NCBI GenBank assembly: GCA_020725605.1
Contig: DYER01000048.1
Location: forward strand, 1 to 34,307
From: Ammonifex sp.
GTDB taxonomy: Bacteria; Bacillota; Desulfotomaculia; Desulfotomaculales; DYER01
Direction of reading: 5' to 3'
DNA length: 34,307 nt
The notes beneath the pieces were generated by a model, which was given only the letters and a program-made list of their open reading frames with translations, made no database searches and had not been told where the DNA came from. The translations under genes were made by a program, and so were the position numbers. Shown piece after piece: positions 4,509 to 18,584 of the stretch. How positions within the stretch are numbered: position 1 is the stretch's first letter; the number at the start of each line of letters is the position of its first letter.

Positions 4509-5301
4509 AGCCCTCCTCCGCCTCCGACTCGGCCTCCCCGACAGGGCGTCTCCCGGGCTTGAGGAAGGCCGTGAGGCGCTCGCGGATCAGGATGGGATTG
4601 TTCCCCGCCTGCAGGGACAGGACGCCCTCCAGCATCAGTTCCATAAGGCGGGTTTCCTTCTTGCTGAGGTTCTTGAGCTTGGTGGCGATGGGCAGCCACA
4701 AAAGGTTGGCCGTGGAAACCCCGTACAGGGTGGCGATGAAGGCCAGGGCTATGGAGGGCCCCAGACGCTCGGGCTCGGTGAGGTTACTCAAAACGTGCAC
4801 CAGGCCCATAACCGTTCCGATGATGCCCATGGTGGGGGCGTAGCCGCCGGCGGCTTCGAAAATGCTGATGCTGGTCTGGTGCCGCTCGTGAACCGAGTAA
4901 ATCTCGGTTTCCATGATGTTGCGCACCAGCTCCGGTTCCGTGCCGTCGATGACCAGCTGGAGGCCCTTGCGCAAGAAAAGGTGCGGCACCTGGTCCAGGT
5001 GGTTTTCCAGGTACAGCAGGCCTTCCCGGCGCGCCCGCTCCGCGAGCTGCACGATCAGTTCGATCATTTCCAGCTCGTCCGGCAGCTTCTTACTCAGGGC
5101 GGTCTTAAGGGCCGCGGGTACGGTGCGCAGCTCCGGCATGGAGAAGCTGCACACGGTGGCCCCGATGGTGCCGCCCAGCACGATGATGGCGGCGCTCGGG
5201 CCCAGCAACCCCGTGACGTGCCCGCCCTCCATAACGAAGCCCGTAATGAGGGCCGCAAACCCGATGACGATGCCTCCGATGGTGGTTATGTCCACAGCCA
5301 T
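4489..5301 (-). CDS. motA: flagellar motor stator protein MotA
   Basis: The protein has the MotA pattern of four membrane helices: two near the N-terminus (GGIVIGFAALITGFVMEGG; AAIIVLGGTIGATVCSF), then a cytoplasmic loop (residues ~55-150), then the paired C-terminal helices in GGYAPTMGIIGTVMGLVHVL and GPSIALAFIATLYGVSTANL. The conserved proline of the PTMG motif is present. Three starts are possible: GTG 5307, ATG 5301 and GTG 5295. AGGTGGGG lies 2 nt before the ATG and 8 nt before GTG 5295, so 5295 is a real alternative that would give the usual MDI start. MotA and MotB together form the ion channel around the flagellar rotor. Confidence 0.95.
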   Translation of the reverse strand: MAVDITTIGGIVIGFAALITGFVMEGGHVTGLLGPSAAIIVLGGTIGATVCSFSMPELRTVPAALKTALSKKLPDELEMIELIVQLAERARREGLLYLENHLDQVPHLFLRKGLQLVIDGTEPELVRNIMETEIYSVHERHQTSISIFEAAGGYAPTMGIIGTVMGLVHVLSNLTEPERLGPSIALAFIATLYGVSTANLLWLPIATKLKNLSKKETRLMELMLEGVLSLQAGNNPILIRERLTAFLKPGRRPVGEAESEAEEGYEKAAS

Positions 5302-5378
5302 CCCCACCTGTCAACACTTAATTCGGCGCACCCCGCCCACGGGTTTATAGTTCTCCACCGGCCATGCGGCTCCTGCCG

Positions 5379-7055
5379 CTAAAACCGGCCGGAACGCAAA
5401 ATGGCGATCAAAAGCCAGAAACCCATGAATCCGGCCAGCACGAAGCCCACTTCGGCCAGGGGCAGGCCCCCGAAAAAGCGGTACCCGGTGGCGGCCAGGG
5501 TAGAGGAGCCGATGAACAGGGCCGCCACCACTATGCCGAAGATGATACGGTTGACCATCCCGCTGGCCCGGAAAAGCACCCGCTCCAGGGACGGATTCTC
5601 CTGCTGCACCTTGAGTTCTCCCCGCGCCAGCAGCTCCAGCACCTCGTGTAACCTGCGGGGCATTTCCAGGAACGTTTGCGCGTACTCCGCGAGGCCGCGG
5701 CCCAGCACCCGCTTCAGGTGGCGCGGCCTGTAGCGTTCCGCGAGCAACCGGCGGCCGAAGGGCCCGGCAATGCGTGCCAGGCTCAGTTCCGGGTCCAGCC
5801 TGGCCACCACACCCTCGGTGGTTACCAGGGCCTTCACCATCATGGTGAACTCCTTGGGCACCCGGACTTTGTATTTGTAGGCCAGCTTCATCAGCTCGGC
5901 CAGCGAGTCGGCCAGGCGCAAATCCTGCAGGGGCACGTCGTAGTATTTGGCCCGCAGCCGGTCGATGTCCTGCCTTAAAGAGGCCAGGTCCGCCTGGCGC
6001 GGTACGACGTTCAGGCTCAGGACGGCCCGCACCACTTCGGGCGTATTCTTGTTCACCAGCCCCAGCACCAGCCGCGCGATGTGCAGCCGGGTCTGCTCGC
6101 CCAGGCGCCCCACCATGCCGAAATCCAGAAAGGCGATCTGCCTGCTTTTCAGCACCAGGAGATTGCCGGGATGGGGGTCCGCGTGAAAGAAGCCGTCGAT
6201 GAGGATCTGCTTCAGGACCGCGTGCACAACACGCCGCGCCAGCACCCTCGGTTCTACGTTCAGGGCCGCGAGGCCGCCCACATCCGTGATCCGTACCCCG
6301 TCCAGGTATTCCATGGTCAGCAGCCGCCGGGTGGTGTACTCCCAGTAGACTTCAGGGACGTAGATGTGGGGATCATCCCGGAAGTGGCGGCGGAAGGTGT
6401 CGATGTGGCGGGCCTCCGCGGTGTAGTCGGTCTCCTCCTGCATGGTGCGCTCGAATTCCTCGACCAGGCCCGTAAAACCGTAAGTCCTGCCCCAGGCGGT
6501 GTGGCGGTCGGCCCAGCGCGCCAGGTCGTAGAGGATTTCCAGGTCCGTGGTGATAACGCCCGTGACCCCCGGCCGCTGAACCTTGACCACCACTTCCTCC
6601 CCGGAGGGCAGGGTGGCGCGGTGCACCTGGCCTATGGAGGCCGCGGCCAGGGGTTCGGGTTCGAAGCGGGCAAAAACCTCGTGCACCGGCCGGCCCAGCT
6701 CGCCCTCGACCTGCATCAGCACTTCGGAGAGGGGAAAGGGAGGCGCGTGGTCCAGCAGGCGGGACAGTTCCTCGACCAGGTCCGGGGCCAGCAGGTCCGA
6801 GCGGGTGGCCAGCACCTGCCCCAGCTTGATGAAGGTCGGCCCCAGCTCCTCCAGCGCCCGGCGCAGGCGGGCCCCCCGGGTGTGGACCGGCTCCTCCCTG
6901 CCCGTCAGGAGGCGGCGGGGCAGGCTCACCAGGTCCCCCAGCCCCAGCTCGTGCACCGCGTATCCGAACCCGTGCCGCACCATCACGTTGGCGATTTCCC
7001 GGTAGCGCTTCAAATGGCGGTAGCGCCGCCGGAAACCCAGCTCCACCTGCTCCAC
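5379..7055 (-). CDS. ABC1/UbiB (AarF) family kinase-like protein
   Basis: The 558-residue protein has all hallmarks of the atypical UbiB kinase family. These are the KxGQ motif in TFIKLGQVLATRSDLL, the alanine-rich loop AAASIGQVHRA in place of a P-loop, the lysine in VVVKVQRPG, HADPHPGNLL and the metal-binding FLDFGMVG. Two C-terminal hydrophobic helices (residues ~495-520 and 525-550) anchor it in the membrane. In respiratory bacteria UbiB supports quinone synthesis; in anaerobic Firmicutes the role is less clear and may concern menaquinone or other lipid handling. The start is GTG with GGAGGGG just upstream. It faces away from the tRNA-Val gene and is the last gene before the accessory island. 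Confidence 0.92.
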   Translation of the reverse strand: MEQVELGFRRRYRHLKRYREIANVMVRHGFGYAVHELGLGDLVSLPRRLLTGREEPVHTRGARLRRALEELGPTFIKLGQVLATRSDLLAPDLVEELSRLLDHAPPFPLSEVLMQVEGELGRPVHEVFARFEPEPLAAASIGQVHRATLPSGEEVVVKVQRPGVTGVITTDLEILYDLARWADRHTAWGRTYGFTGLVEEFERTMQEETDYTAEARHIDTFRRHFRDDPHIYVPEVYWEYTTRRLLTMEYLDGVRITDVGGLAALNVEPRVLARRVVHAVLKQILIDGFFHADPHPGNLLVLKSRQIAFLDFGMVGRLGEQTRLHIARLVLGLVNKNTPEVVRAVLSLNVVPRQADLASLRQDIDRLRAKYYDVPLQDLRLADSLAELMKLAYKYKVRVPKEFTMMVKALVTTEGVVARLDPELSLARIAGPFGRRLLAERYRPRHLKRVLGRGLAEYAQTFLEMPRRLHEVLELLARGELKVQQENPSLERVLFRASGMVNRIIFGIVVAALFIGSSTLAATGYRFFGGLPLAEVGFVLAGFMGFWLLIAILRSGRF

Positions 7056-7145: not shown

Positions 7146-7220
7146 GGGCGCGTAGCTCAGAGGGAGAGCGCTTGACTCACATTCAAGAGGTCACAGGTTC
7201 GATCCCTGTCGCGCCCACCA
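7146..7220 (+). tRNA. tRNA-Val (anticodon CAC), CCA encoded
   Basis: The 75-nt gene folds into a standard cloverleaf: acceptor GGGCGCG/CGCGCCC, D-arm GCTC/GAGC, anticodon stem CTTGA/TCAAG with loop CTCACAT (anticodon CAC), a 5-nt variable loop and T-arm ACAGG/CCTGT with TTCGATC. The discriminator is A and CCA is encoded. Its first 47 nt differ from the tRNA-Ala(CGC) at 26382-26456 at only two positions, one being the middle anticodon base. Pair 3-70 is G-C, as expected for valine identity rather than the alanine G-U. The 3' end abuts an integrase remnant, so it probably served as an attachment site. Confidence 0.95.
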
Positions 7221-7260
7221 GGAAAATCAAGGCTTCGCGGCCTCGGCCGCAAGAGTTAAA

Positions 7261-7295
7261 GGGTCGGCTGACATCAATTTGACATCAACCGACCC
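7261..7295. repeat. inverted repeat enclosing a 9-bp direct repeat, next to tRNA-Val
   Basis: GGGTCGG (7261-7267) and CCGACCC (7289-7295) can pair. Between them TGACATCAA occurs twice, 2 bp apart. It sits 40 bp after the tRNA 3' end, inside the integrase C-terminal remnant, where arm-type or core-type recombinase sites often lie. No second copy of the tRNA 3' end was seen in the island, so the other attachment half was not found. Confidence 0.4.
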
Positions 7296-7320
7296 TGCAA
7301 ACCGAATACCTAACCGGCTT

Positions 7321-7349
7321 ACCCTTCCCTTGCGGAAGGGTTTTCTTTT
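7321..7349 (+). terminator. intrinsic terminator downstream of tRNA-Val
   Basis: ACCCTTCC (7321-7328) pairs with GGAAGGGT (7334-7341) around a 5-nt loop, followed by TTTCTTTT. It lies about 100 nt after the tRNA and within the apparent C-terminal reading frame of the integrase remnant, which is running the other way. Confidence 0.65.
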
Positions 7350-8168
7350 ACCTGCAGGACGCCTTCCAGCCTGGCCGCGGCCCGCTCCTTGAGGCCGGGC
7401 CCTTTTCAACCGCTCCTCTTTCCACCGGATCCGCCAGGCCTTGAGGCTCCTCACCACCGGCCCGGGCAGCGGGACGGTGCGCCGGCCGCTCCTGGTCTTG
7501 GGCTCCTGGAACACCGGCCCGGTGCGGGTGCCCACCAGGGAACGCTCCACGGTGACGGTCCCGGTCTCCAGGTTCACGTCCTGCCACCTCAAGGCCAGCA
7601 GTTCCCCGCGCCGGAGGCCGGAGCCCACCAGCAGGTGAAAGGCCGGGGAAAGCCGGTACCCGCGCGCCGCCTCCAGGACGCTCCTCGGCCCGCAGCTTCT
7701 CCAGCGGCGTGGCCGCCAGCTTGTCCGTCACGTGCCGGCGGACGATGACCTCGTAGTTCTCCCAGGTGGTCTACCGCACGTGGGGCTTCTTGAAGACCTC
7801 CAGCCACGTTTTCAGCCATTCGCCCAGGGTGACCCTGTTGCCCCTGGGTGACACCAGGCCGGCCTGGACCTCGGCCAGGGCCCGGTTCACCCTCTCGGCC
7901 ACCTCCTGGCGGGTGCGGCCGTAGAAGAACTTCCGCACGTACTCGCCGGTCTCCGGGTCGCGGCCCACGATTACCGCGCCCTGCCAGCGCCCATCCCTGC
8001 GCCTGGTGATGCTCCCTTCGTTGTTGCCGCGCTTCTTGCCCATGTTTTCCCTCCCTTTCGTGTAGAGGCCCGAGAAGGCCGGTCTAACTTCGCGCAATCT
8101 TTTTTCCCTATGCACCCACGCGCGAGATGGGCCTCTACGCAACGGCGGACCGCCCGCTTCCCTAGTTT

Positions 8169-8399
8169 CTACAGCAGCTTCTTGAGTTCTTCCGCCGACA
8201 GCCGGGAGCTCTTCAAAATGGCCTGTACCACTTTGAGCGGCAGGGTTTCACCGGCGTGGACGGGCACCGTAGCCCACCGCGTCGGGTCTTCCGGGTGACT
8301 TAGAAAGTGATGGCTACCCGCCACCCGCACCACCACGAAACCGGCCCGCCTCAGGGCGCGGAGCATTTGCCTGCCGGTAACCCTGGGCAGTCTGCTCAC
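8169..8399 (-). CDS. hicA: HicA-family mRNA interferase toxin
   Basis: The 76-residue protein has the double-stranded-RNA-binding-like fold signature of HicA: VTGRQMLRALRRAGFVVVRVAGSHHFLSH, with the catalytic histidine in GSHHF, then WATVPVHAGETLPLKVVQAILK. HicA toxins cleave mRNA on the ribosome when released from HicB. The start is GTG at 8399, overlapping the hicB stop by 4 nt, so the two are translationally coupled. Nothing in the reading frame suggests inactivation, although neighbouring phage genes are dead. No clear terminator follows; only a small GC hairpin without a T-run is seen. Confidence 0.92.
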   Translation of the reverse strand: MSRLPRVTGRQMLRALRRAGFVVVRVAGSHHFLSHPEDPTRWATVPVHAGETLPLKVVQAILKSSRLSAEELKKLL

Positions 8400-8620
8400 G
8401 CCGGTACCACCACTTCCACCACAGAGACGTCTACGTCACCCGCAGGCACGGGCTGGCCGGTGGCCTTCAAGCCTTGCACGGTGGCCGTGATGGCCTCCCG
8501 CACCCGCTCCAGGGCCTGCTCCTTTGTCTTTCCGTAGGTGGCGCAACCCGGCAGGGCGGGTACCATCGCCACGTAGGCACCGCTTTCCGCGTCCCATTCC
8601 AGGACTACCGTGAACCTCAT
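8396..8620 (-). CDS. hicB: HicB-family antitoxin (short form)
   Basis: The 74-residue protein has the ferredoxin-like HicB N-terminal domain: FTVVLEWDAESGAYVAMVPALPGCATYGKTKEQALERVREAI. It ends after VVEVVVPA with no helix-turn-helix or ribbon-helix-helix extension, so it is likely to neutralise HicA but not to bind DNA by itself. ATG 8620 follows GGAGAGGG and overlaps the upstream XRE gene by 4 nt (ATGA). The order regulator-antitoxin-toxin with two 4-nt overlaps makes one compact operon. Confidence 0.92.
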   Translation of the reverse strand: MRFTVVLEWDAESGAYVAMVPALPGCATYGKTKEQALERVREAITATVQGLKATGQPVPAGDVDVSVVEVVVPA

Positions 8621-8847
8621 CGGCCCTCTCCTTTCTGATTATCGTCCGGCACGTACACCAGCAGGTCCCCGGGTTGGCAGTCCAGGGCCTTGCAAAGACG
8701 GGCCAGCACGTCAAAGCGGATGCCTTCGGCCCGGTCGTGGTAGAGACGTAGCAAAGTGGTCTTACCAATTCCCGTCCTGCGGGCTATTTCCGTCATCTTC
8801 AACCGTTTGGCACCCAAAATGTAGGACAGCCGGCTCTCTATGCGCAT
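8617..8847 (-). CDS. XRE-family helix-turn-helix regulator
   Basis: The 76-residue protein is a single Cro/CI-type HTH domain: LSYILGAKRLKMTEIARRTG followed by recognition helix IGKTTLLRLYHDRAEGIRFD and LARLCKALDCQPGDLLVYVPD. The start is the ATG at 8847, chosen because AGGTGGG sits about 7 nt upstream; the frame is open further to 8952 but this extension would cover the promoter region. It is the first gene of the XRE-hicB-hicA operon and faces a near-consensus promoter on the other strand, whose spacer contains an ACCGGT site also found upstream of this gene. It is therefore a good candidate for an autorepressor and for the repressor of the phage-like gene. Confidence 0.88.
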   Translation of the reverse strand: MRIESRLSYILGAKRLKMTEIARRTGIGKTTLLRLYHDRAEGIRFDVLARLCKALDCQPGDLLVYVPDDNQKGEGR

Positions 8848-8863
8848 GGTATCACCCACCTTT

Positions 8864-8892
8864 ATTGTAACCGGTAACGATTTTTTTAGCAA
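8864..8892 (-). promoter_or_regulatory. candidate promoter of XRE-hicB-hicA with overlapping operator
   Basis: On the minus strand TTGCTA and TACAAT are spaced by 17 bp. The nearly palindromic GTAACCGGTAAC (8867-8878) overlaps the -10 element. The expected start site would fall close to the ribosome binding site, so the transcript would be nearly leaderless; this weakens the call. Confidence 0.4.
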
Positions 8893-8933
8893 CACCCACG
8901 AAAACTTTTTCTCCGTAAACGGCAAAAAGGGTA

Positions 8934-8962
8934 TTGACAATGGTATCGTCACCGGTTATACT
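8934..8962 (+). promoter_or_regulatory. near-consensus sigma-A promoter facing the phage-like remnant
   Basis: A perfect TTGACA (8934-8939) and TATACT (8957-8962) are separated by exactly 17 bp. The spacer carries TGGTATC and ACCGGT sites. The first start codon downstream is the ATG at 8997, preceded by AGGAAG. It is among the strongest promoter matches noted in the window, yet it drives a broken gene. Confidence 0.8.
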
Positions 8963-8996: not shown

Positions 8997-9660
8997 ATGA
9001 CCGACACCCTGAAAGAACTGGTCGAAAAGGCCCGTACCCTGCGGAGCAGGTGGCCGAGCTTACGGCCCAGCTGGCCGCCAAGCGGCAGGCCCTTCGTGAC
9101 CTGCCGGCCGGGCAGAAGGAAATTGAGGCCCAGGTGGCGGGAGAAGTGGCGGCGGAGGGGGGGCGGCAACGGGAAGAAGAAGTACCCGAACGAGGAAGCG
9201 CGGAAAGGCGAAGTGGCCCGCCGGCTCAAGGCCGACACCCGGTACCAGGCCATCGAGAAGGAGCTTGCCAGGGTACGCCTGGAGCTGGTAGAGCTGGAGA
9301 CTAACCTGGAGCGGGCCCGCCACGAGTTCCGGGGCCGCCAACACCCTGCTCACCCTGCTGGCCTCGGCGGTGCAGGCCAACCGGCCCGAGATTGAGCAGG
9401 ACGTACTGGGCGGCACCCAGGCCGCACCCCAGGCCCCGGCCGGCAACGGCAGGGAGCAGCACCTGCAGAACTTCGCCCAGGCCGTGAACCAGGTGGCCAA
9501 CGGCGCCCCGGCGCCGAAGGCCGAGGCCAGGAGCGACGCCGAGGAGCTGGAGGCCGGGGTTCTGGAGGTCAGGCCCGGGAAGCAAGGAAGGGACATTCCA
9601 GTTCTGGTGCGAGACGCCCGAGGGCAAGCAGGCCGTGTTCGCAAGAACAACAAGTGGACG
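8997..9660 (+). pseudogene. phage-like coiled-coil protein, multiply frameshifted
   Basis: From ATG 8997 the product starts MTDTLKELVEKARTLR. It continues in another frame as EQVAELTAQLAAKRQALRDL, then back as YPNEEARKGEVARRLKADT and RYQAIEKELARVRLELVELE, and then in a third frame as ANTLLTLLASAVQANRPEIE. The pieces join end to end into one plausible mostly helical protein of about 200 residues, followed by an Ala/Pro/Gln-rich linker and a short FQFWCETPEGKQAVF segment. At least three or four frameshifts prevent translation. The precise family was not recognised; an early phage gene is suggested by position right after a repressor-controlled promoter. Confidence 0.65.
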
Positions 9661-9775
9661 GTGCCGAACTGCTGCGCAGGATTACCGTCAACCCCGAAAT
9701 CTTCGGGGGCAAGCCCACCGTACGCAATCTCCGTATCAAGGTGGAAAACGTGCTGGCATCCGCCAGGAAAGCCGC
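9654..9775 (+). pseudogene. DUF433-family fragment
   Basis: MDGAELLRRITVNPEIFGGK followed by PTVRNLRIKVENVLA matches the start of DUF433 proteins (RIxxNPEIxGGKPxVRGxRIxVExVL), small proteins often paired with PIN-like toxins. The conserved second half is missing; the frame runs into unrelated Arg/Pro-rich sequence. It is best read as a remnant of a toxin-antitoxin module truncated by rearrangement. Confidence 0.6.
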
Positions 9776-9858
9776 GATGGCCTCCGGCGGCACGCCGACC
9801 CGCCGGGTAAGGCGCCGTACCAGGGGCGGCCCGTCCCGCCCGCGCCGGGGGCTGCCTC

Positions 9859-10143
9859 CAAAAAGCGAAAGGCCCGGCCGCGCAGGATGCGCCGCGCCGG
9901 ACCCCTGGTCACTTGGTCCTTGCAGATGTCTTCCCGTCCGCAGCCCCAGGTGCCCTACCGGCCGGAGGCTGCGGAGGTGGCACTCGCAGTCGTGCCGCCG
10001 CTTGGCCCCGAAAGGGGAGCCACTTTGGCGGTCTCGAAGGTCAGCACCGCCAGGTTGTGGTTGCACAGGACCTCGACGTACTGAGATTCGATGGCAGGAG
10101 CTGCTCCGAGGCCTGAAGGACCTCCAGGCCGGTGCCCACGCCC
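9859..10143 (-). repeat. decayed copy A of the tolC 3' end with its terminator hairpin
   Basis: Translating 10113-10000 on the minus strand gives AIESQYVEVLCNHNLAVLTF and ETAKVAPLSG, nearly identical to the C-terminus of the TolC-family protein at 12889-14301. The GGCCCGGC...GCCGGACC hairpin of that gene is also present here at 9871-9903. About 280 bp are recognisable; the frame is broken before and after. It lies between the phage/DUF433 remnants and the vapBC-like pair. Between 10144 and 10289 nothing coding was recognised. Confidence 0.8.
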
Positions 10144-10289
10144 GCTCAGTCGCGCCTCTACGACGAGCTTGACCTGCTCCTTGACGACCTCGAGGGCTTT
10201 TTCCGCCATCCCCTTGGTATCGCCACCACCCCCCGCCCGATATCCCCTTGGGCCCAGCTCGCGGCCACGATGGCGCGGAATTCGGTCAC

Positions 10290-10318
10290 TTGACTCTCCC
10301 CCACACAACGGGTATCCT
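10290..10318 (+). promoter_or_regulatory. sigma-A-type promoter of the vapBC-like pair
   Basis: TTGACT (10290-10295) and TATCCT (10313-10318) are separated by 17 bp. The antitoxin ATG at 10353 follows with AAGGAGG at about 13 nt spacing. Confidence 0.6.
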
Positions 10319-10352
10319 GTAAGAAAGTAAGGAAGGAGGAAAGAAACAGGGT

Positions 10353-10628
10353 ATGAGGACCACCAAAGTTACCGCTAAAGGCCAGGTAACCCTGCCAAAG
10401 GAGGTGCGCCAGAAGCTGGGCCTTCAGGCCGGCACGCGCCTGGAGGTGCGCCTGCGCGGCAACGAGGTGGTGCTCAAACCGGTGCCCCGGGAAGCCGACA
10501 CCGAGCAGTTCCTGCAATTCTGCCGGGCCAGGGCGCACGGCGCCGACCTTGCCCGGACCAGGGACATCCTGAAGCGCCTCAATCTCCCCATGCCCGAAAG
10601 GGTACGGCAACTGCGGGAGGAACGCTAG
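10353..10628 (+). CDS. AbrB/MazE-type antitoxin (VapB-like)
   Basis: The 91-residue protein starts with a swapped-hairpin AbrB domain: MRTTKVTAKGQVTLPKEVRQ, KLGLQAGTRLEVRLRGNEVV. The C-terminal ~40 residues are charged and helical (FLQFCRARAHGADLARTRDI) and would wrap around the toxin. Such antitoxins repress their own operon. The toxin gene starts 5 bp after the stop. The pair lies between tolC-tail copies A and B. Confidence 0.9.
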   Translation: MRTTKVTAKGQVTLPKEVRQKLGLQAGTRLEVRLRGNEVVLKPVPREADTEQFLQFCRARAHGADLARTRDILKRLNLPMPERVRQLREER

Positions 10629-10633
10629 CCCAC

Positions 10634-11074
10634 ATGGACACCTTTTTCCTGGACACCAGCGCGCTCTTTAAGCGCTACCGTTGGGAAGAAGGCTCTGCCA
10701 CCGTTGAGGGTCTCTTCGCGCGCCAGGCCGGCCGGCTCATTGCCGAGGTGACCCTCCTGGAAGTGGTGAGTAACCTGCGGCGGCTGCTCGACGTGGACCG
10801 GCTCATTACCGACGAAGAATTCGACGTTCTGCTGGCCACCTTTTTCGACGACCTGGCGCGCGAACTCCTGCAGGTGGTGAGACTCTCCCACGCCGTACTC
10901 GCGACGAGTCTGGATATCGCCTCCCGGCTGTACGTAACCCCCCTCGATGCGGTGCAGTTGGCCTCCGCCCTCGCACTGCCCGAACCACCGGTATTTGTCT
11001 GCGCGGACCAGAAACTCCTGCGCCTGGCGGAGGAACTGGGTCTCGAAACGGTGGACGTATCCCGCGACGTGTAG
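10634..11074 (+). CDS. PIN-domain ribonuclease toxin (VapC-like)
   Basis: The 146-residue protein shows the four acidic PIN positions: D7 in FFLDTSALFKRY, E43 in LLEVVSNLRR, D105 in TPLDAVQLASAL and D125 in VCADQKLL. These would hold the metal ions used to cleave RNA. The sequence is intact and of normal length (about 130-150). ATG 10634 has GGGAGGA about 13 nt upstream, within the antitoxin end, so the two are probably coupled. Target RNA cannot be predicted. Confidence 0.92.
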   Translation: MDTFFLDTSALFKRYRWEEGSATVEGLFARQAGRLIAEVTLLEVVSNLRRLLDVDRLITDEEFDVLLATFFDDLARELLQVVRLSHAVLATSLDIASRLYVTPLDAVQLASALALPEPPVFVCADQKLLRLAEELGLETVDVSRDV

Positions 11075-11200
11075 ACCCCGCCACCCGGACCCTGACGGCC
11101 GGATACTTTTCGGAGAGCACAGAGGAACCCCGTCTTCAGCAACATCCTGCCGAAATCCCTCACCAGCGCTTTCCCCCGGTCGGGGTCCGGCGCCCGCCTC
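11075..11200. other. spacer after vapBC, nothing recognised
   Basis: No gene, hairpin with T-run or repeat was recognised here. Together with repeat copy B it makes a gene-free gap of nearly 700 bp. Confidence 0.5.
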
Positions 11201-11683
11201 CAGTTTACACCACTCCGCCAACTTCCCGCAGGGAGAACGCGGCACTCCCCCCGTAGGGTGAACCCGGCGCCCAAAAGCCAGGGGCCCGGCCGCGCCGTCA
11301 GAGCGCGCCGGACCCCCGAACCTGTGCTTTTACTCCCACGTACCACCGGCACGAAGCAGCATTATCGCTGCCGCAGGCCGGGCCCTTGAGCCCGCACTTT
11401 TACGCCACCCGCGCCCGGCCGTGCCCCTACCGGGTAGAGGTCGAGGAGCCGGCGCCCGTGGAGGTCCCGGCCGAGAGGCCGGACACGGGGGCCCACCATG
11501 GCGGTCTCGAAGGTTAGGAGGGTCAGGCTGCAGTTAAACAGGGCCTCGACGTACTGGGACTCGATGCGCAGCAACTGCTCCGAGGCCTGGAGCCCTCCAG
11601 ACCGGTGCCCACGCCACCCCGTAGCGTACGCTCGCCAGGCGGTGGTTCTCCCGGACCCGCTCCAGACGGGCCTTCCGGCGAAC
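11201..11683 (-). repeat. decayed copy B of the tolC 3' end with downstream flank
   Basis: The minus strand encodes EQLLRIESQYVEALFNCSLT and LLTFETAMV, matching the TolC C-terminus at 12889-13140. The nucleotide match extends to about 11683 on the gene side. On the other side it reaches the hairpin GGCCCGGC...GCCGGACC (11283-11314) and the 13-bp CAGTTTACACCAC at 11201-11213, which recurs at 12733-12745 beside the intact gene. Small deletions have destroyed the frame. It lies between the vapBC-like pair and the Rpn gene. Confidence 0.85.
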
Positions 11684-11761
11684 ACAATCGGGTACGACGG
11701 ACCGGCGATGACACCGGGCGCAACCCTCCCGGCCGACCTGATGGACCAGAAGTAAGGCGCT

Positions 11762-12694
11762 TCAGTTGTGCGAGCCAACCACCTCGGCCAGGAAGGCCGT
11801 GAATTCCTCAAGGCTGCGCGCCCGCGCCGCCTTTCTCAGCAGCGCTTTGAGCACCGCCGGGTCCTCCACCTGCTCCAGCCTCCCGGGCAGGTCCTGCGGG
11901 TAGGCTCCCACCGTCTCCGCCAGGGCCTCCAGTACCGCCTCCACCAGGCCGCGGCGGCGGCCCTGGTGTAAGCCCTGCTGCAGTCCCTGTTGCAATCCCT
12001 GCTGTAATCCCTGCTGTAATCCGTGCCGTACTCCCTGGTCGATCCACTTTTCCCGGATGCCGTCGAACAAGGGCGATTGCTCCATCTGGCTCACCTCGAT
12101 CACCTTGAGAATCACTTCCCGCGCCACGCGCAGCGAGGCGAATATCCCCAATCCCAGGTACAGGTCCGGCCGCGCCTCAGGCGGAGCCTCCCGCACCCGC
12201 TCCGCGCACGCCCGCAGCACTTCCTCTTCCGGTTCCTCGTGCCGCATCAATGGCACCAGCGGTATCAGGCCCACCGGTCCTCCCGCCAGTACTCCCGCCC
12301 CCGGTACCTCGGTCAGGTTGATCTGCCGGTACCAGAAGCTCACCACCCGCACTCCCAGACACTCGAAGCCGTACAGCCCCTGGGCCGGGCAGCCCGTGAG
12401 GTTGAGGACCACCGGGTACACCGGCAGGCCGTAGGCGCGGTGGTGCAGGGCCGTGTATTCCAGCAACCTCCGCGCCATCTCCGGGTCCGGCCGCGTCTGG
12501 ACCTCCATGAGCATGAGGTATTCGTAACCGTTTTCCCGGACCTGGAACAGCAGGTCCGTCTCCCGCCGCGTGGCTACGGCTTCCTTTTCCGCCCGCCGTA
12601 CCTCGCTCACCGGTTTGCCGCGTACGAATAAGACAAAGTCCGCCGCGTACCTGGCCGCCAGGGCCTTGAACACCAGGTCGATCTCTTGTGCCAC
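11762..12694 (-). CDS. Rpn-type PD-(D/E)XK nuclease / putative transposase-like protein
   Basis: The protein (310 residues) fits the Rpn/PDDEXK_2 family: KALAARYAADFVLFVRG, then an active site with D47 (ETDLLFQV) and E64-V-Q66 (LMEVQTRPD), then YPVVLNLTG. Rpn proteins are DNA endonucleases that stimulate recombination, often in multiple variable copies. The C-terminal part has a GLQQ repeat (five units) before a helical tail rich in Glu and Arg. Start GTG 12694 was chosen because GGAGGT ends 5 nt upstream; a TTG at 12718 lies ahead of that site. The frame is complete. It sits between two tolC-tail copies. Whether it acts in recombination or phage defence is not shown here. Confidence 0.85.
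   Translation of the reverse strand: MAQEIDLVFKALAARYAADFVLFVRGKPVSEVRRAEKEAVATRRETDLLFQVRENGYEYLMLMEVQTRPDPEMARRLLEYTALHHRAYGLPVYPVVLNLTGCPAQGLYGFECLGVRVVSFWYRQINLTEVPGAGVLAGGPVGLIPLVPLMRHEEPEEEVLRACAERVREAPPEARPDLYLGLGIFASLRVAREVILKVIEVSQMEQSPLFDGIREKWIDQGVRHGLQQGLQQGLQQGLQQGLHQGRRRGLVEAVLEALAETVGAYPQDLPGRLEQVEDPAVLKALLRKAARARSLEEFTAFLAEVVGSHN
11970..12029 (-). repeat. 12-bp tandem repeat within the Rpn gene (5 units)
   Basis: Five near-identical 12-bp units, two of them exactly AATCCCTGCTGT, encode the peptide repeat GLQQ on the minus strand. Because the unit is a multiple of three, copy-number change would lengthen the linker without breaking the frame. Confidence 0.85.
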
Positions 12695-12732
12695 CGGGCA
12701 CCTCCGCCCAAACGTCAAAGGTCCTTCATCCT

Positions 12733-13140
12733 CAGTTTACACCACATCAGTGCTTTTCGGCAAGGAGGAGGGAGTCCCGCCCGCGCCGGGGAACTCGGCT
12801 CCCAAAAGCAAAAGGCCCGGCCGCGCGAGATGCGGTGCCGGACCCTTTCCCTCTGAGAGTACTCTCCCACCCGCAGAAGTCCGTGCCCCTACCGGGTTGA
12901 GGTCGAGGAGCTGCCGCCCGTGGAGGTCCCGGCCGAGAGGCCGGAGACGGGGGCCACTCTGGCGGTCTCGAAGGTCAGGACGGCCAGGTTGTAGTTGAAC
13001 AGGGCTTCGACGTACTGGGACTCGATGCGCAGCAACTGCTCCGAGGCCTGGAGGACCTCCAGGATGGTGCCCACGCCCACCTCGTAGCGCAAGGACGCCA
13101 GGCGGTGGTTCTCCCGGGCCTGCTCCAGGCCGGCCTTTAA
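12733..13140 (-). repeat. parent copy C of the repeated tolC-tail unit
   Basis: This is the intact counterpart of copies A (9859-10143) and B (11201-11683): CAGTTTACACCAC at 12733-12745, the terminator hairpin, and the last ~250 bp of the tolC-family coding sequence. The shared stretch GGCGGTCTCGAAGG (12961-12974) is an easy anchor; it recurs at 10027 and 11500. Confidence 0.85.
12810..12846 (-). terminator. intrinsic terminator of the tolC-family gene
   Basis: On the minus strand GGTCCGGC (12844-12837) pairs with GCCGGGCC (12821-12814) and is followed by TTTTGCTTTTGG. It ends the tolC transcript 45-80 nt after the stop codon. The same stem is conserved in repeat copies A and B. Confidence 0.75.
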
Positions 13141-14301
13141 GTAGTCAAGTGCTTCCTGCGCAGCCCTCACGCTCAGGTACGCGGTCGTTATTTCGCTGGC
13201 CGCCTGCTTCTTTTTATCTTCCAGCGCCAGCTCCGCCTGCCGCAGGTCTACCTCGGCCAGTCGGGAGGTAAAGGTGTTGGGCGCGGTGTAGGCTACGGCC
13301 AGTCGGTGGGCTTCCCGCGCAACCTCGACGGAAGCCACAGCCTGCCGTACGTCCAGGCGCTTCTCCTGGGCTTCTGCTATGGCCGTATCCAGATCAACCG
13401 TGGCGTCTAACTGCAGGCGCTCTACCACTCCTTCGGGCTTGATGGCAACGTTCAGCGGCAATCCGACCTGACGGGCAAGCTCGACCTCGGCGGTCCGCAC
13501 CTGGTTCTCCGCCGCGGCAAGGTCCGCGCGAGCGCGCGCCAACCCCGCTTCCGCGGCCAAGACGTCCGTCCGCGATACGGTTCCGGCGGTAGAGGCCGCC
13601 CTGGCCTGAGCGAGCTGCTGGGTGGCTCGCTCCACCGCCCGCTTGTTGGCGTCAACCAAAGCGCGCGCCTTAACGAGAGCATAATAGTCTTTGCTGATCA
13701 ACAGCCGGACTTGCTCCCTGGTAACCTCGAAAGACCTGTCGGCTATCTCCAGAGCCAGTTTTTTCTGCATGTCCGCCAGGTACTTAACCTGTGCCTGCGA
13801 CAAACTGCTCACTTTCTCCAACCGGCGGGCCGCTTCGTACGCCTGCTCCGCCTCGATACCGGCACGCGTCCGGGCCAGTTCTGCCTGCTTGATGAGGCTG
13901 TTGTTTTCGAGGGCCATATCGATAGCCTCTGTCAGGGTGAGTGTGATGCCCGACGAGTTACCATCAGTCGCTGCCGCAGGCAAGCCCGTGGAGGTTCCCC
14001 TTTTGAGGTCCGTAGATGATGCTCCGCCAGCCAATGTAGCGATAAGTGCCGTTGGCCTAAGCTGGCCATTGGCTTTTTGGAGGGATAATGCGTCCCCGTG
14101 AGCCTCGCTTGCTGTCTCTACCCTCAGGCCTCGCACATCCGCGACCCCGCTCGAGGCCTGCGCATACTGAGTTTTGTGGCCCAACTGTTCGCCTGTCAAA
14201 TAGACCGGGGGTTCCGCGTTTAGCCCTGCTACAGGCTCCGCGCCCAAAACCGTAACGCCTACAACCAGACAAACAGCTACCACAAATAGGCGACGGGTCA
14301 T
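12889..14301 (-). CDS. TolC-family outer-membrane-efflux-like protein
   Basis: The 470-residue protein has a signal peptide (MTRRLFVVAVCLVVGVTVLG), a ~100-residue low-complexity segment, and then two repeated OEP-type coiled-coil modules (residues ~120-290 and ~300-450). Typical patterns are TLTEAIDMALENNSLIKQAE, SRTDVLAAEAGLARARADLA and LRIESQYVEALFNYNLAVLT. TolC proteins form trimeric channels through outer membranes, fed by inner-membrane pumps. Homologues occur in some clostridial Firmicutes where an outer membrane is not expected, so the role here is open. ATG 14301 has GGTGGAAGG directly upstream; an in-frame ATG at 14319 is the alternative. No pump or adaptor gene is adjacent; neighbours are a propeller protein and an S-layer protein. 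Confidence 0.88.
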   Translation of the reverse strand: MTRRLFVVAVCLVVGVTVLGAEPVAGLNAEPPVYLTGEQLGHKTQYAQASSGVADVRGLRVETASEAHGDALSLQKANGQLRPTALIATLAGGASSTDLKRGTSTGLPAAATDGNSSGITLTLTEAIDMALENNSLIKQAELARTRAGIEAEQAYEAARRLEKVSSLSQAQVKYLADMQKKLALEIADRSFEVTREQVRLLISKDYYALVKARALVDANKRAVERATQQLAQARAASTAGTVSRTDVLAAEAGLARARADLAAAENQVRTAEVELARQVGLPLNVAIKPEGVVERLQLDATVDLDTAIAEAQEKRLDVRQAVASVEVAREAHRLAVAYTAPNTFTSRLAEVDLRQAELALEDKKKQAASEITTAYLSVRAAQEALDYLKAGLEQARENHRLASLRYEVGVGTILEVLQASEQLLRIESQYVEALFNYNLAVLTFETARVAPVSGLSAGTSTGGSSSTSTR

Positions 14302-14393
14302 CCTTCCACCCCAGTGCATTTTTCCTGTTTCCTGAATGTCCGAAAATGCCCGGACGCTCCGTACGTCCGAGAGGCAGAGGTACCTTGCTTACG

Positions 14394-15818
14394 CTATGAA
14401 CCGCCGCGTGCTAGACGCACCGTTTGGGTCGCGCCATCCCACTCAACGGTGGCGCCCAATGCCTCTGCGACACGGCGTACCGGTACCATAACCCTACCTC
14501 GTTCAAGGAACGGACTAACCTCCATTGTTATGGACAGACCGTCTACCACTGCTTGGGCGTTGCCAACCACCACACACGCTTCCCGCCCGCCGCAGCGAGC
14601 CGTCACCGCCCGCGCATCGGGGTCCCATTGCACGCTTCCCCCGAGTGCCTCGACCACAAACCGGAGGGGAGCAACGGTCCTGTTATCCACCAGGCGAGGG
14701 GGCACTTCCATGATAACCTCGCCCGCCGGGGTATTCGTAATAGCTGATCCAATCCGTAGTTCAACCCACCATTCGGGGGCCTCCGGAAGTTGTCCCCCGG
14801 CGCCGGTCTCCGCCAGGTCGGCTAATACCACCTCAACCTCGTCGCCCTTCTGCCTGAGGAAAGCGACCCGCCCGTCCCCGATGGCGGGCTTGTACTCATT
14901 ATAGGAAGTCCCGGCCAGGCCTTGCTCGACACCAGTCTTGAGATCCATTATAAAGATGTCATCATTGCCATAGCGCCGATCCGTCCAGACGACCACATCC
15001 CGCCAGATGGCAGGCTGATACTGGTCCGCGCTGTTGTTCGTCAGGCGCCGCTCCTCACCCGTGCCCACGTCATACAGGTAGATGTCCCGGTTCCCGTGCC
15101 GGTTATCGGTCCACACAATACGCGTACCCCATACCGCCGGCTCGGTCTGCACGCTGTCTACCGTGGTTACCGGCCTTTCCGTTCCGCCGGTGAGGTCCCG
15201 GTACCACACCCGCGGCCGCCCGGTGCGGTAATCGACCCAGGCCACGATGCTACCGGAAACGGTCGGGCTGCGCTGGTGGGCCGGGTTGTCGGTAACCCGG
15301 GTCTCCATGCCGCCCACGAGGTCGTAGGCGTAGATGTCGTCATTGCCGTTGCGGCGGTCCACCCAGACCAGAGTGCTACCGTCCGTGTTGCAACCGTACT
15401 TATAGGAACCCGGTGCTACTAACCTGCGGGCCCTTCCCACTACTAGGTCCATAATATAAAGGTCACTTCCGGCCGCTCCCGGTTGAACCCAAGCCAGCCA
15501 CCGGCCACCGCCGGCCAGCCTACCTGCCAGATCAACCCTCTCCGCAAGCCGTAACGGCTTGCCCGCCTCCAGCGACCAGTACGCTTCTCCTCCTCCCCCC
15601 CGCTGGGCCAGCCACGCCACGCCATTCCCGACGACCCACGCCTGCCTGACCCCGGAACCAAGGTACAGCACCATCTCCGCACCCTGCGCGATATGTCCGC
15701 CCACCAGGAGCGTACTGCCGACCAGGGCCAGTACCACCACCCTCCAAACCGCGCCCGCCGTTTTCCAGCGGCCAAAATTCAACCCGCCCAGCCGCGGACA
15801 CCCATGACAGCCGTTCAA
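14394..15818 (-). CDS. secreted TolB-like beta-propeller protein with copper-amine-oxidase-N-like (stalk) domain
   Basis: The 474-residue protein has an N-terminal hydrophobic export segment (WRVVVLALVGSTLLVGG). About six WD/TolB-like blades follow at residues ~50-340, with recurring WVDRRNGNDDIYAYDL, WTDNRHGNRDIYLYDV and WTDRRYGNDDIFIMDL. The last ~110 residues form two copies of the stalk module seen in copper amine oxidase N-terminal-like domains (RLVDNRTVAPLRFVVEALGG, FLERGRVMVPVRRVAEALGA), common in extracellular clostridial proteins. The start is TTG 15818 with a G-rich site 7 nt upstream; a later GTG near the hydrophobic segment is possible. It lies between the SLH gene and tolC in the same direction. 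Binding to cell wall or S-layer is inferred, not shown. Confidence 0.85.
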   Translation of the reverse strand: MNGCHGCPRLGGLNFGRWKTAGAVWRVVVLALVGSTLLVGGHIAQGAEMVLYLGSGVRQAWVVGNGVAWLAQRGGGGEAYWSLEAGKPLRLAERVDLAGRLAGGGRWLAWVQPGAAGSDLYIMDLVVGRARRLVAPGSYKYGCNTDGSTLVWVDRRNGNDDIYAYDLVGGMETRVTDNPAHQRSPTVSGSIVAWVDYRTGRPRVWYRDLTGGTERPVTTVDSVQTEPAVWGTRIVWTDNRHGNRDIYLYDVGTGEERRLTNNSADQYQPAIWRDVVVWTDRRYGNDDIFIMDLKTGVEQGLAGTSYNEYKPAIGDGRVAFLRQKGDEVEVVLADLAETGAGGQLPEAPEWWVELRIGSAITNTPAGEVIMEVPPRLVDNRTVAPLRFVVEALGGSVQWDPDARAVTARCGGREACVVVGNAQAVVDGLSITMEVSPFLERGRVMVPVRRVAEALGATVEWDGATQTVRLARGGS

Positions 15819-15856
15819 CCACGCACCACCCCCCGGATATCACCGCGACTCACTAG

Positions 15857-15888
15857 CAAATCGGGGGCTCCGCAGGGGAGCCCCCGAT
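15857..15888 (-). terminator. strong intrinsic terminator of the SLH gene
   Basis: On the minus strand a perfect 12-bp stem, ATCGGGGGCTCC / GGAGCCCCCGAT (15888-15877 with 15871-15860), encloses the 5-nt loop CCTGC and is followed by TTTG. It separates the SLH transcript from the propeller gene. Confidence 0.85.
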
Positions 15889-15911
15889 CGCCTTCGGTTA
15901 GCAGCGACTGG

Positions 15912-18584
15912 CTAGTTGTTGACCACCATCCACTTGATGACGCCCTTGTCGGCGTAGAACCGTACCGCGTCGTCCTTGCCGACATCGCGCAACGTCATCG
16001 GCATCGGGTCGGTCTCGTCGATGTCGTAGATGATGGTGTCGCTGTCCACCAAGTACCAGTTATCCGTGTCGTCCGCCGGGTCCGCGGTGCCCTTCGTGTC
16101 CACGATCCGCACGCGGTTCTCACCGCTCTTGACTTCCTTAACATACACAGCGCTGGAGACCGTACTGTTCACGTTCTCTACGCCGGTGAAGTCAAAGCCA
16201 TTAGTGTAATCCACGGCACTGATCTTGCCCGCCGAGAAGGTGAGCTTAATCACGTCACCCTTGGTGACCCTGCTCCACCCGGTGGGCGTGCCGGATACCT
16301 TGTACGTGGTCGCCTGTCCGGCGCGGTCGACCTTGAGCCACCAGCCGTCGGCGTCCCTGCCCTTGTCCATTACCATGTAGAAATCTTTGGTCGCGATATC
16401 CTCGGTGGCCATCACGACAATGTAATCCACCAGCCCGTCGGCTCCGGAAGAGTAGTACGCAATCTGCACATCCTGCCCTCCGTCCACCGCATCGTAAAGA
16501 TCCCTATACTTAACGACTGAGGCGTAGGTGTCGCCCTCGGTCCTGAGGCTGAAGACCACCACGTCGTCCGCGACCTGCAGCCATGTACTCCCGTTGACCT
16601 GCATGCGGCCGGTGTCAACATCGGTCATGGTCGCCCGCGTCCAGACGCTGCCTCCAGGCACAACCCCATCCGTCAGGTCGTCAAAGCTGTCGACCACACC
16701 GGCAGAGGTCACCGTGAACTCGACGAATACGTCGACATCCTGCTCGGAAGCGGCATAAGCATTCCTGAAGGCCTTTGCCTCGTCGCTGGAATCCTTATTA
16801 ATCTCGTAGCTGGCCTCGGTACCGTCCGCCTTAAGTACCTTGATGTAATCTGTCACGCCGCTGGCGGAGGCTGCCTGCCGGATGACCTCCGTAACCACTC
16901 CGTAGATCTTATTGCCCGCCGCCTTCGTGCTGGTGATAAGCAGCTGGACCTGGCCCGCAGGATTGAGCCGCACCTCGACGTCCTGGTCGATCAGGTCCTT
17001 GTCAATGTTGCGCGCAACAGTCAGATCTCCATCGAAGTCGGTGCCGCCGTCGGTAGAATAAGTGGCGTTTTCGGCTAGTTCGTACCACTTGTCGCCGACC
17101 TGGATCTTGGTGGCTACGTCGGCGTTCGAATCGCTAACCTGGTAGGCGGTCAGCCTGCCCTGGGCCTTCTTGTCGGTGGCATCGAAGAGGTACTGCACGC
17201 CGCGCCCGTAGTTGAATACTAGGTCGTTCTCCTTCAGGTCGCTAAGACCCGCAAGCTTGCCGTTCTTAAACACATAATACTGTCCGTCCTTGTCGGAGAG
17301 ATCCAGGCGCGTAGCGCTATAACCGTACCGCTTGCCGTCCTGCTTGAGCCGCACGACCTTCCTGTCGGCGTCCACCGAGTCGACGACCGCAGCCTGCCGC
17401 CAGTTCAGGAACTTGATGCGGACCGCCTTGCCGTCCTTGTCGATGGTCACCTTGTAAAGCTGGTCGGCGTCAAGCTTTTCACTGCTAGCGTTCGCCCACA
17501 CGGTTGTGCCGTCGCTCCTATATACCACGCCAGCAGTTGTTATGCTGTTGCCATCCCAGCTAGCTCCGACTTGACGGCCGGTGCCGACGAACGTGGCGTT
17601 GGCCGCCACCTCATAACTCTTCCCGTTAATTTCGATGCGTGTTAGCTTACCGCTGCTGTTCGTGGTAACTTTGACCTCGTCCGCCGTCTGAACATCGTAC
17701 TTTGCCTCAACGTAGTTGGCGTACCACTTGTCGTCCGTCTTATCGTAGTATATGATGTAGTCTACGACCCTATCGAGCAACGCCGGAAAATTCGCTACCC
17801 CGTAGAGCGTATAGTCCTTCGCCAGCTCGACGGTATCTCCGTTGGTGAGTACTAGACGTAGCTTGTTATCATGAAGATCGAAGTTAGTTACAACCTGATC
17901 CTTTACCAGTACAGAATCCTTAAAGCTGTCCGCCCGCAACGTGATCGGCTGGCCGTTGCGCAGCTTCTCCGTGAACACATTCTTTTCGGCGTCATAATCC
18001 ACAATGTTCTCGTCGAGGGTTGCGTCGGTCAAGATCGCAACTTCGCCGCGGGTAGCCGGCATGGCGGCGCGCACGGTTATGTCCTCGGTCACACCAAGCT
18101 TTGCCGCCTTGGCGAGATAGTCGAACGGCCAATCGCCGGGTAGGTTGTCGTTATAACCCAGCAGGCGCATCAGTACAGTGATGACTTCCTGCTGCGTGAT
18201 CTGGGCGTCGGGCTTAAAGGTTCCGTCCGGATAGCCCTTCACGTAACCTTGGGCCGCGGCGATGTTAACCCACCCCGTATACCACGCGCCGGTGGGTACA
18301 TCGGCGAACGGGGAAGGTACGTTCTCGTACCCGGACGCCACGTCCTTCAGCCCGGCTGCAATCACGGCAAACTTACAAAACTCGGCGCGCGTGATGGTGT
18401 TGTCCGGTCGGAAGGTGCCGTCCGGATACCCGTCTATCACGCCCTGGGCGGCCAGCCGCATGATGGCACTCGCGGAGGGCTTACCTTGGATGTCGGAGAA
18501 GACCGCCGCGCTGGCCACCGCCGCCAGGCCGAAGACCGCAGCCGTGAGCACGAGCAGGAATAGCAGGTATTTCGCGCGTTTCAT
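15912..18584 (-). CDS. S-layer homology (SLH) domain protein, probable main S-layer protein
   Basis: The 890-residue protein has a signal peptide (KRAKYLLFLLVLTAAVFGLA ending ASA). SLH domains follow at residues ~28-75 (GVIDGYPDGTFRPDNTITRA) and ~90-140 (GYVKGYPDGTFKPDAQITQQ), with a weaker third to ~190 (LGVTEDITVRAAMPATRGEV). The remaining ~690 residues are Asp/Thr/Val/Lys-rich, beta-type sequence without cysteine-rich or enzymatic motifs, as in structural S-layer proteins. SLH domains bind pyruvylated secondary cell-wall polymer. AAAGGAGG lies about 14 nt before ATG 18584. A structured GC-rich leader and a strong terminator frame it as its own high-expression transcript. Confidence 0.92.
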   Translation of the reverse strand: MKRAKYLLFLLVLTAAVFGLAAVASAAVFSDIQGKPSASAIMRLAAQGVIDGYPDGTFRPDNTITRAEFCKFAVIAAGLKDVASGYENVPSPFADVPTGAWYTGWVNIAAAQGYVKGYPDGTFKPDAQITQQEVITVLMRLLGYNDNLPGDWPFDYLAKAAKLGVTEDITVRAAMPATRGEVAILTDATLDENIVDYDAEKNVFTEKLRNGQPITLRADSFKDSVLVKDQVVTNFDLHDNKLRLVLTNGDTVELAKDYTLYGVANFPALLDRVVDYIIYYDKTDDKWYANYVEAKYDVQTADEVKVTTNSSGKLTRIEINGKSYEVAANATFVGTGRQVGASWDGNSITTAGVVYRSDGTTVWANASSEKLDADQLYKVTIDKDGKAVRIKFLNWRQAAVVDSVDADRKVVRLKQDGKRYGYSATRLDLSDKDGQYYVFKNGKLAGLSDLKENDLVFNYGRGVQYLFDATDKKAQGRLTAYQVSDSNADVATKIQVGDKWYELAENATYSTDGGTDFDGDLTVARNIDKDLIDQDVEVRLNPAGQVQLLITSTKAAGNKIYGVVTEVIRQAASASGVTDYIKVLKADGTEASYEINKDSSDEAKAFRNAYAASEQDVDVFVEFTVTSAGVVDSFDDLTDGVVPGGSVWTRATMTDVDTGRMQVNGSTWLQVADDVVVFSLRTEGDTYASVVKYRDLYDAVDGGQDVQIAYYSSGADGLVDYIVVMATEDIATKDFYMVMDKGRDADGWWLKVDRAGQATTYKVSGTPTGWSRVTKGDVIKLTFSAGKISAVDYTNGFDFTGVENVNSTVSSAVYVKEVKSGENRVRIVDTKGTADPADDTDNWYLVDSDTIIYDIDETDPMPMTLRDVGKDDAVRFYADKGVIKWMVVNN

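What the first reader, a model, noticed from the sequence alone, without database searches (positions are those of the whole stretch)
9859..13140. The tolC 3' end and its terminator occur three times, bracketing toxin and nuclease genes
Copies A and B encode recognisable IESQYVE...LTFETA remnants plus the same GGCCCGGC/GCCGGACC hairpin as the intact gene. The order is phage/DUF433 remnants - A - vapBC - B - Rpn nuclease - C (intact tolC). This would result if successive elements inserted at the tolC 3' end and each brought or duplicated a replacement tail, as integrases do at gene ends. Alternatively it reflects serial tandem duplication with cargo in between. A gene-end hotspot of this kind at a TolC-family gene would be new to me.
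Basis: partly seen in the sequence, partly recalled or inferred. Interest (0 to 1): 0.62.

Follow-up and report, generated by a model that had tools for sequence, protein, structure and literature searches.

The report
Decayed tolC-tail duplications in toxin island
Beside a normal tolC gene lie two broken copies of its last part, left by repeated local DNA duplication in a toxin-gene-rich stretch; a second stretch of the same genome shows the same pattern, and nothing indicates a new kind of insertion hotspot at tolC.

Summary
Two diverged copies of the tolC 3' end with its terminator (A 9833-10143, 76% to tolC; B 11257-11674, 87.5% over the tail) lie downstream of intact tolC (12889-14319, minus strand), in the order DUF433 remnant - A - AbrB/PIN - B - Rpn - tolC. 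They are the only copies in the genome. The gene-end-hotspot reading is not supported. The interval has no integrase and no common copy end, no free element ends in the tail, and three relatives' tolC genes carry neither cargo nor extra tails. Two details point to local segmental duplication and decay. Beside B there is an orphan rpn promoter (GTGGTGTAAACTG, found twice in 2.2 Mb, conserved upstream of rpn genes in other genera), so the duplicated unit reached into rpn. Copy A also keeps a piece of tolC residues about 192-208, so it was once longer. Contig C1 of the same genome repeats the pattern: vanZ 3' ends recur together with rpn, with other toxin-antitoxin genes between. Fragment repeats flank 9/20 rpn loci and 5/20 PIN loci in the order, against 3/20 random regions. 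Best reading: serial local duplication and decay in a toxin island, related to 'insertion with long target duplication'. Ordinary in kind; modest interest.

The parts
12889..14319 (-). Intact tolC (copy C), 476 aa, outer membrane efflux protein family
   Evidence: Pfam OEP PF02321 E 2.3e-32; only full-length copy in the genome
12799..12846 (-). tolC terminator hairpin (copy C)
   Evidence: fold -30.1 kcal/mol, z -2.9; aligned with A and B
12694..12745 (-). rpn promoter and leader: GTGGTGTAAACTG, then probable start codon GTG at 12694
   Evidence: TAAACT about 40 nt upstream of the start is conserved in rpn genes of other genera; the 12-mer occurs only here and at 11202 in the genome
11762..12718 (-). 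Rpn-like (PD-(D/E)XK) nuclease gene, 318 aa as listed; start by homology probably at 12694
   Evidence: 55-66% identity to relatives in other genera; weak TIGR01784 and PF04754 matches below cut-off
11405..11674 (-). Copy B: frame-shifted tolC tail, codons ~395-476
   Evidence: 87.5% to tolC, E 1e-90; differences spread evenly over codon positions 7/9/10
11257..11320 (-). Terminator hairpin of copy B
   Evidence: 85% to 12788-12826; fold -37.3 kcal/mol, z -3.0
11201..11213 (-). Orphan rpn promoter motif (GTGGTGTAAACTG) beside copy B, no rpn gene behind it
   Evidence: no rpn coding remnant detectable here
10634..11074 (+). PIN-domain toxin (VapC-like), 146 aa
   Evidence: PF01850 E 1.4e-9
10353..10628 (+). 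AbrB/MazE-type antitoxin, 91 aa
   Evidence: PF04014 E 9.5e-15; TIGR01439 E 1.9e-16
10166..10213 (-). Extra internal tolC piece in copy A, about residues 192-208, directly 5' of the tail
   Evidence: TolC-profile score matched by 0 of 600 control stretches; protein test p 0.005; DNA test p 0.03
9833..10143 (-). Copy A: tolC tail from codon ~415, terminator (9856-9905) and about 25 bp beyond
   Evidence: 76% to 12774-13078, E 1e-52; fold of hairpin
9654..9757 (+). Truncated DUF433 gene to the left of copy A
   Evidence: PF04255 E 1.6e-7 over positions 1-27 of 56

Best explanation
A and B are decayed remnants of local, serial segmental duplications that took in the 3' part of tolC, its terminator and, for B at least, the neighbouring rpn gene's promoter, inside a toxin-antitoxin/Rpn-rich island. 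One complete tolC stayed intact, presumably under selection. The downstream partial copies were free to decay, and toxin modules (AbrB-PIN, Rpn) were gained, kept or lost between them. Shown: the copies, their order, their decay, the orphan rpn promoter motif, the internal tolC piece in A, and a second locus (contig C1) where vanZ ends and rpn genes are repeated together. Inferred: tandem duplication as the copying step, A as the oldest copy (most diverged), loss of the first rpn body, and later arrival of AbrB-PIN. The molecular cause (illegitimate recombination at short homologies, template switching at breaks, or insertion with long target duplication) is not resolved.
For: (a) GTGGTGTAAACTG is identical beside B and C, 65-66 bp from each hairpin. 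Its 12-mer core occurs only twice in 2.2 Mb. TAAACT about 40 nt before the start codon is found upstream of rpn genes in other genera and on C1. So the duplicated unit contained the rpn promoter. (b) Copy A holds, in order and strand, a piece of tolC residues ~192-208 next to the tail (0/600 controls; p 0.005), so it was once longer and suffered an internal deletion. (c) Contig C1: vanZ fragments 3712-4063, 4793-4902, 8586-8938 (85-88%), rpn 5164-5913 with a remnant at 9777-10072 (88-89%), and an antitoxin 5' end 2063-2164/7655-7756 (92%), all in one direction. Gene tail and rpn were copied together and different modules lie between. (d) B differs from C evenly over codon positions (7/9/10): it was not kept as a gene. 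(e) Order-level test: fragment repeats (>=75%, >=75 bp, gap >=300 bp) at 9/20 rpn loci, 5/20 PIN loci, 3/20 random regions; own genome 0/6 other PIN loci, 1/20 random regions, that one at 77% identity.
Against: No coding remnant of rpn is detectable beside B or A, so the first rpn copy is inferred from its promoter motif only. No relative of the same family is held, so no pre-duplication or intermediate state was seen. The internal piece in A is 17 residues. A-C differences lean to third codon positions (11/8/17), which could mean A was a separate functional or foreign tolC rather than a local duplicate. The order-level difference between rpn and PIN loci (9 vs 5 of 20) is too small to mean anything, the repeat thresholds were set after a first look at the data, and some repeats at rpn loci have other causes (REP elements next to a REP-type transposase in L140).
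Confidence: 0.6

Rival explanations
1. Insertion with long target duplication: Rpn and, separately, AbrB-PIN inserted singly into the tolC 3' region, each duplicating several hundred bases of target, which regenerates an intact gene on one side and leaves a tail on the other.
For: Layout L-T-cargo-T-R fits. The Rpn insert 11675-12729 is little more than one gene. The phenomenon is reported for restriction-modification genes (PMC1643837, PMC3874152). A young analogue exists in the order: Rpn between two 100% identical 305-bp copies of the 5' end of a ZIP-like gene (L132).
Against: The orphan rpn promoter motif beside B means the duplicated segment already held rpn sequence. On C1 rpn is copied along with the tails. 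In the other young-looking analogue (Spo0M-like gene/AbrB-PIN, L182) sister genomes carry the module with a full Spo0M-like gene on the other side and no clean empty site.
Confidence: 0.25
2. Whole tandem tolC genes (three paralogues) that decayed in place, with cargo dropping into the dead copies.
For: Copy A retains a piece from the middle of tolC. Spacing between copies (1412-1531 bp) is close to the length of the gene with its terminator (1521 bp).
Against: B shows no tolC sequence beyond codon ~395. All three nearest relatives have a single tolC. The spacing match has no mechanism and may be coincidence.
Confidence: 0.12
3. Site-specific elements integrating at the tolC 3' end, each bringing or displacing a tail.
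For: Tails in the same orientation; intact gene at the promoter-proximal end; a decayed integrase at 7227-8142.
Against: That integrase abuts tRNA-Val (7146-7220), its likely own target. No integrase in 9833-12800. No fixed core sequence. No free elements. No cargo at tolC in relatives.
Confidence: 0.03

Closest known systems
Insertion with long target duplication (Nobusato et al. 2000, described in PMC1643837 and PMC3874152)
   Same: Selfish or toxic single modules bracketed by long direct repeats of the gene they sit beside, with one gene copy left intact; no transposase or integrase.
   Different: Defined by comparison with an empty site, which is not available here; described for restriction-modification genes; here the duplicated segment appears to include the cargo's own promoter.
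Rpn (YhgA-like, PF04754) recombination-promoting nucleases (PMC5350276, PMC10327210)
   Same: The cargo gene is a distant relative. Rpn proteins raise RecA-independent recombination and cut DNA without clear sequence preference; a template-switch model was proposed.
   Different: This gene is below the family cut-offs; no activity is known for it and no causal role in the duplications was tested.
Tandem gene duplication with pseudogene decay
   Same: Diverged, frame-shifted, same-strand partial copies next to an intact gene.
   Different: Unrelated toxin modules lie between the copies.

Membership tests
Insertion with long target duplication | Long direct repeats of target sequence directly flanking a single inserted module | tested here: met
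   B and C flank rpn; A and B flank AbrB-PIN
Insertion with long target duplication | Empty site with a single target copy in a relative | not testable with these tools
   no genome of the same family held; order-level tolC only 32-43% identical
Insertion with long target duplication | Inserted module absent from the duplicated target | tested here: not met
   rpn promoter motif present in both repeats
Gene-end site-specific integration | Integrase in the element | tested here: not met
   only an integrase remnant beside tRNA-Val, outside the repeats
Gene-end site-specific integration | Fixed crossover (core) sequence at each copy's end | tested here: not met
   copies end at different tolC codons, no common core
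Rpn nuclease | Match above the curated cut-off of PF04754 / TIGR01784 | tested here: not met
   19.4 of 21 bits and 27.4 of 52.1 bits
Rpn nuclease | PD-(D/E)XK catalytic residues | tested here: inconclusive
   RETDLLFQV...LMLMEVQTR resembles the D...ExQ core by eye; not modelled

The most novel reading that the evidence does not exclude
Rpn-type nucleases promote local duplication of the DNA around their own genes, so that rpn and companion toxin modules spread by copying the ends of neighbouring genes without transposase or integrase.
Probability: 0.08. Interest if true: 0.6.

Novelty: new member of a known kind. Interest (0 to 1): 0.3.

Why it matters
It shows how gene-tail copies with matching terminators can arise without any integrase, a pattern easily mistaken for an integration hotspot. 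Together with contig C1 and the two younger cases in the order it gives a small set of loci in which the way toxin-antitoxin and Rpn modules spread could be tested.

Tried and rejected
Rpn coding remnants left of A and B: first DNA alignments looked suggestive (p 0.04 and 0.18), but the Rpn profile gave p 0.26 and 0.68; dropped. Common start of units right of A and right of B: no similarity (p 0.73). tolC homology right of B: none. tRNA-Val 3' end repeated as the far end of the integrase element: not found in the window. Free elements: none in plasmids, phages or viral contigs. An Rpn-specific association with repeats: rpn 9/20, PIN 5/20, random 3/20, so not shown to be specific. L140's 60-bp repeats are REP-like and were not counted as support. 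A clean empty site for the Spo0M-like/AbrB-PIN analogue: the region is rearranged in sister genomes.

Full report
What is there. The window is a whole contig (C42, 34,307 bp) of a 2.2-Mb, 115-contig assembly about 85% complete. On the minus strand lies an intact tolC-family gene (12889-14319; OEP domain) with an intrinsic-terminator-like hairpin downstream. Further downstream are an Rpn-like nuclease gene (11762-12718, minus), a frame-shifted copy of the tolC tail with a hairpin (B), an AbrB/MazE-type antitoxin and PIN toxin pair on the plus strand (10353-11074), and a second tail copy with hairpin (A), followed by a truncated DUF433 gene. B is 87.5% identical to tolC over 272 nt and A 76% over 316 nt. 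The genome holds no other copy.

Fine structure. The right ends of the tails differ: A stops at tolC codon ~415 and B at ~395. To the left, A shares about 25 bp beyond the hairpin with C, while B and C share an identical 13-mer, CAGTTTACACCAC, 65-66 bp from each hairpin. Its 12-mer core occurs exactly twice in the genome. Read on the minus strand it is GTGGTGTAAACTG, directly upstream of rpn. In rpn relatives of other genera a TAAACT-type hexamer lies about 40 nt before the start codon, preceded by TG in several, and the same element precedes both rpn copies of contig C1. So the sequence beside B is best read as an orphan rpn promoter: the segment copied with B reached into rpn. No rpn coding remnant can be shown there.

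Copy A was longer. Next to tail A, in the right order and strand, a stretch reads MAEKALEVVKEQVKLVV, matching tolC IADRSFEVTREQVRLLI (residues ~192-208). With a TolC profile none of 600 control stretches scored as high; a protein-alignment control gave p 0.005 and DNA alone p 0.03. A therefore looks like a longer tolC copy with an internal deletion of about 200 codons. B has nothing of tolC beyond its tail. Differences between B and C fall evenly on codon positions (7/9/10), as for a copy dead since its birth; A shows 11/8/17.

A second locus. Contig C1 holds the only other rpn genes of this type found in the genome. There, parts of a vanZ-like gene occur at 3712-4063, 4793-4902 and 8586-8938, rpn at 5164-5913 with a remnant at 9777-10072, and an antitoxin 5' end at 2063-2164 and 7655-7756, all 85-92% identical and in one direction. 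AbrB-PIN, DUF433 and nucleotidyltransferase-HEPN modules lie among them (vanZ and several module names are by eye, PIN). Here gene ends and rpn were copied together, which is the segmental-duplication pattern with both rpn copies still visible.

How general. In 20 rpn loci of other genomes of the order, 9 held fragment repeats (>=75% identity, >=75 bp, >=300 bp apart, not touching rpn), against 5 of 20 PIN loci and 3 of 20 random regions; in the own genome 0 of 6 further PIN loci and 1 of 20 random regions, that one at 77% identity. Thresholds were chosen after a first look, so these are counts, not a formal test. If there is an excess, it belongs to toxin-gene islands rather than to rpn alone. 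Two young-looking analogues were read in detail. In L132 rpn lies between 100% identical 305-bp copies of the 5' end of a ZIP-like gene. In L182 an AbrB-PIN pair lies between 97% identical 540-bp copies of the 5' part of a Spo0M-like gene (gene names by eye). For L182, sister genomes show the module with a full Spo0M-like gene on the other side (L202), with a shrunken second copy (L204), or with hardly any of that gene (L203). That looks like differential loss after duplication, not a clean empty site.

Integration reading. Between A and C there is no integrase. The decayed integrase at 7227-8142 sits directly behind tRNA-Val, its likely target, and the tRNA end is not repeated elsewhere in the window except weakly at the tRNA-Ala gene. 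The tails have no common crossover point. Searches of plasmids (tolC query), phage records (9800-13150 query) and viral contigs (tolC and Rpn proteins) found nothing. Relatives G009, G011 and G096 have one tolC each (32-43% identical) with no toxin or rpn gene seen directly behind it. A hotspot at tolC is therefore not supported.

Relation to known things. [quoted passage not shown]). The layout agrees, but its defining empty site could not be tested, and the promoter motif shared by both repeats speaks against a simple insertion of rpn into a virgin target. Rpn proteins raise RecA-independent recombination and cut DNA non-specifically, with a template-switch model proposed (PMC5350276), so a causal role is thinkable but untested. 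I conclude that this is serial local duplication and decay in a toxin island: a new example of a known kind of event.

Noticed in passing
7146-8952: A decayed tyrosine-integrase gene (weak Phage_integrase match in one of its pieces) lies directly behind tRNA-Val (7146-7220), with HicA/HicB-like ORFs (by eye) and a Cro/C1-type regulator next to it: remains of a tRNA-targeted element separate from the tolC tails.
   Followed up: partly
L054 (contig C1) 2053-10951: Dense toxin island with AbrB-PIN pairs, two unlike Rpn genes, DUF433, nucleotidyltransferase-HEPN modules and repeated vanZ fragments.
   Followed up: yes
12892-18584; L055, L056, L057: A TolC-family gene lies near an S-layer (SLH) gene in the window and, by eye, in three distant relatives of the order (G096, G011, G009).
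   Followed up: no
11960-12030: The Rpn gene holds several in-frame units of a QQGL-type short repeat in its C-terminal third.
   Followed up: no
L140 5909-11344: Five REP-like repeats containing CGGGGGACTGACCCC around an Rpn gene and an Rpn fragment, with a REP-associated-transposase-like ORF at 4990-5508.
   Followed up: partly
L182 and L202-L204: A Spo0M-like gene and an AbrB-PIN module appear in different arrangements and copy states in sister genomes of one genus.
   Followed up: partly
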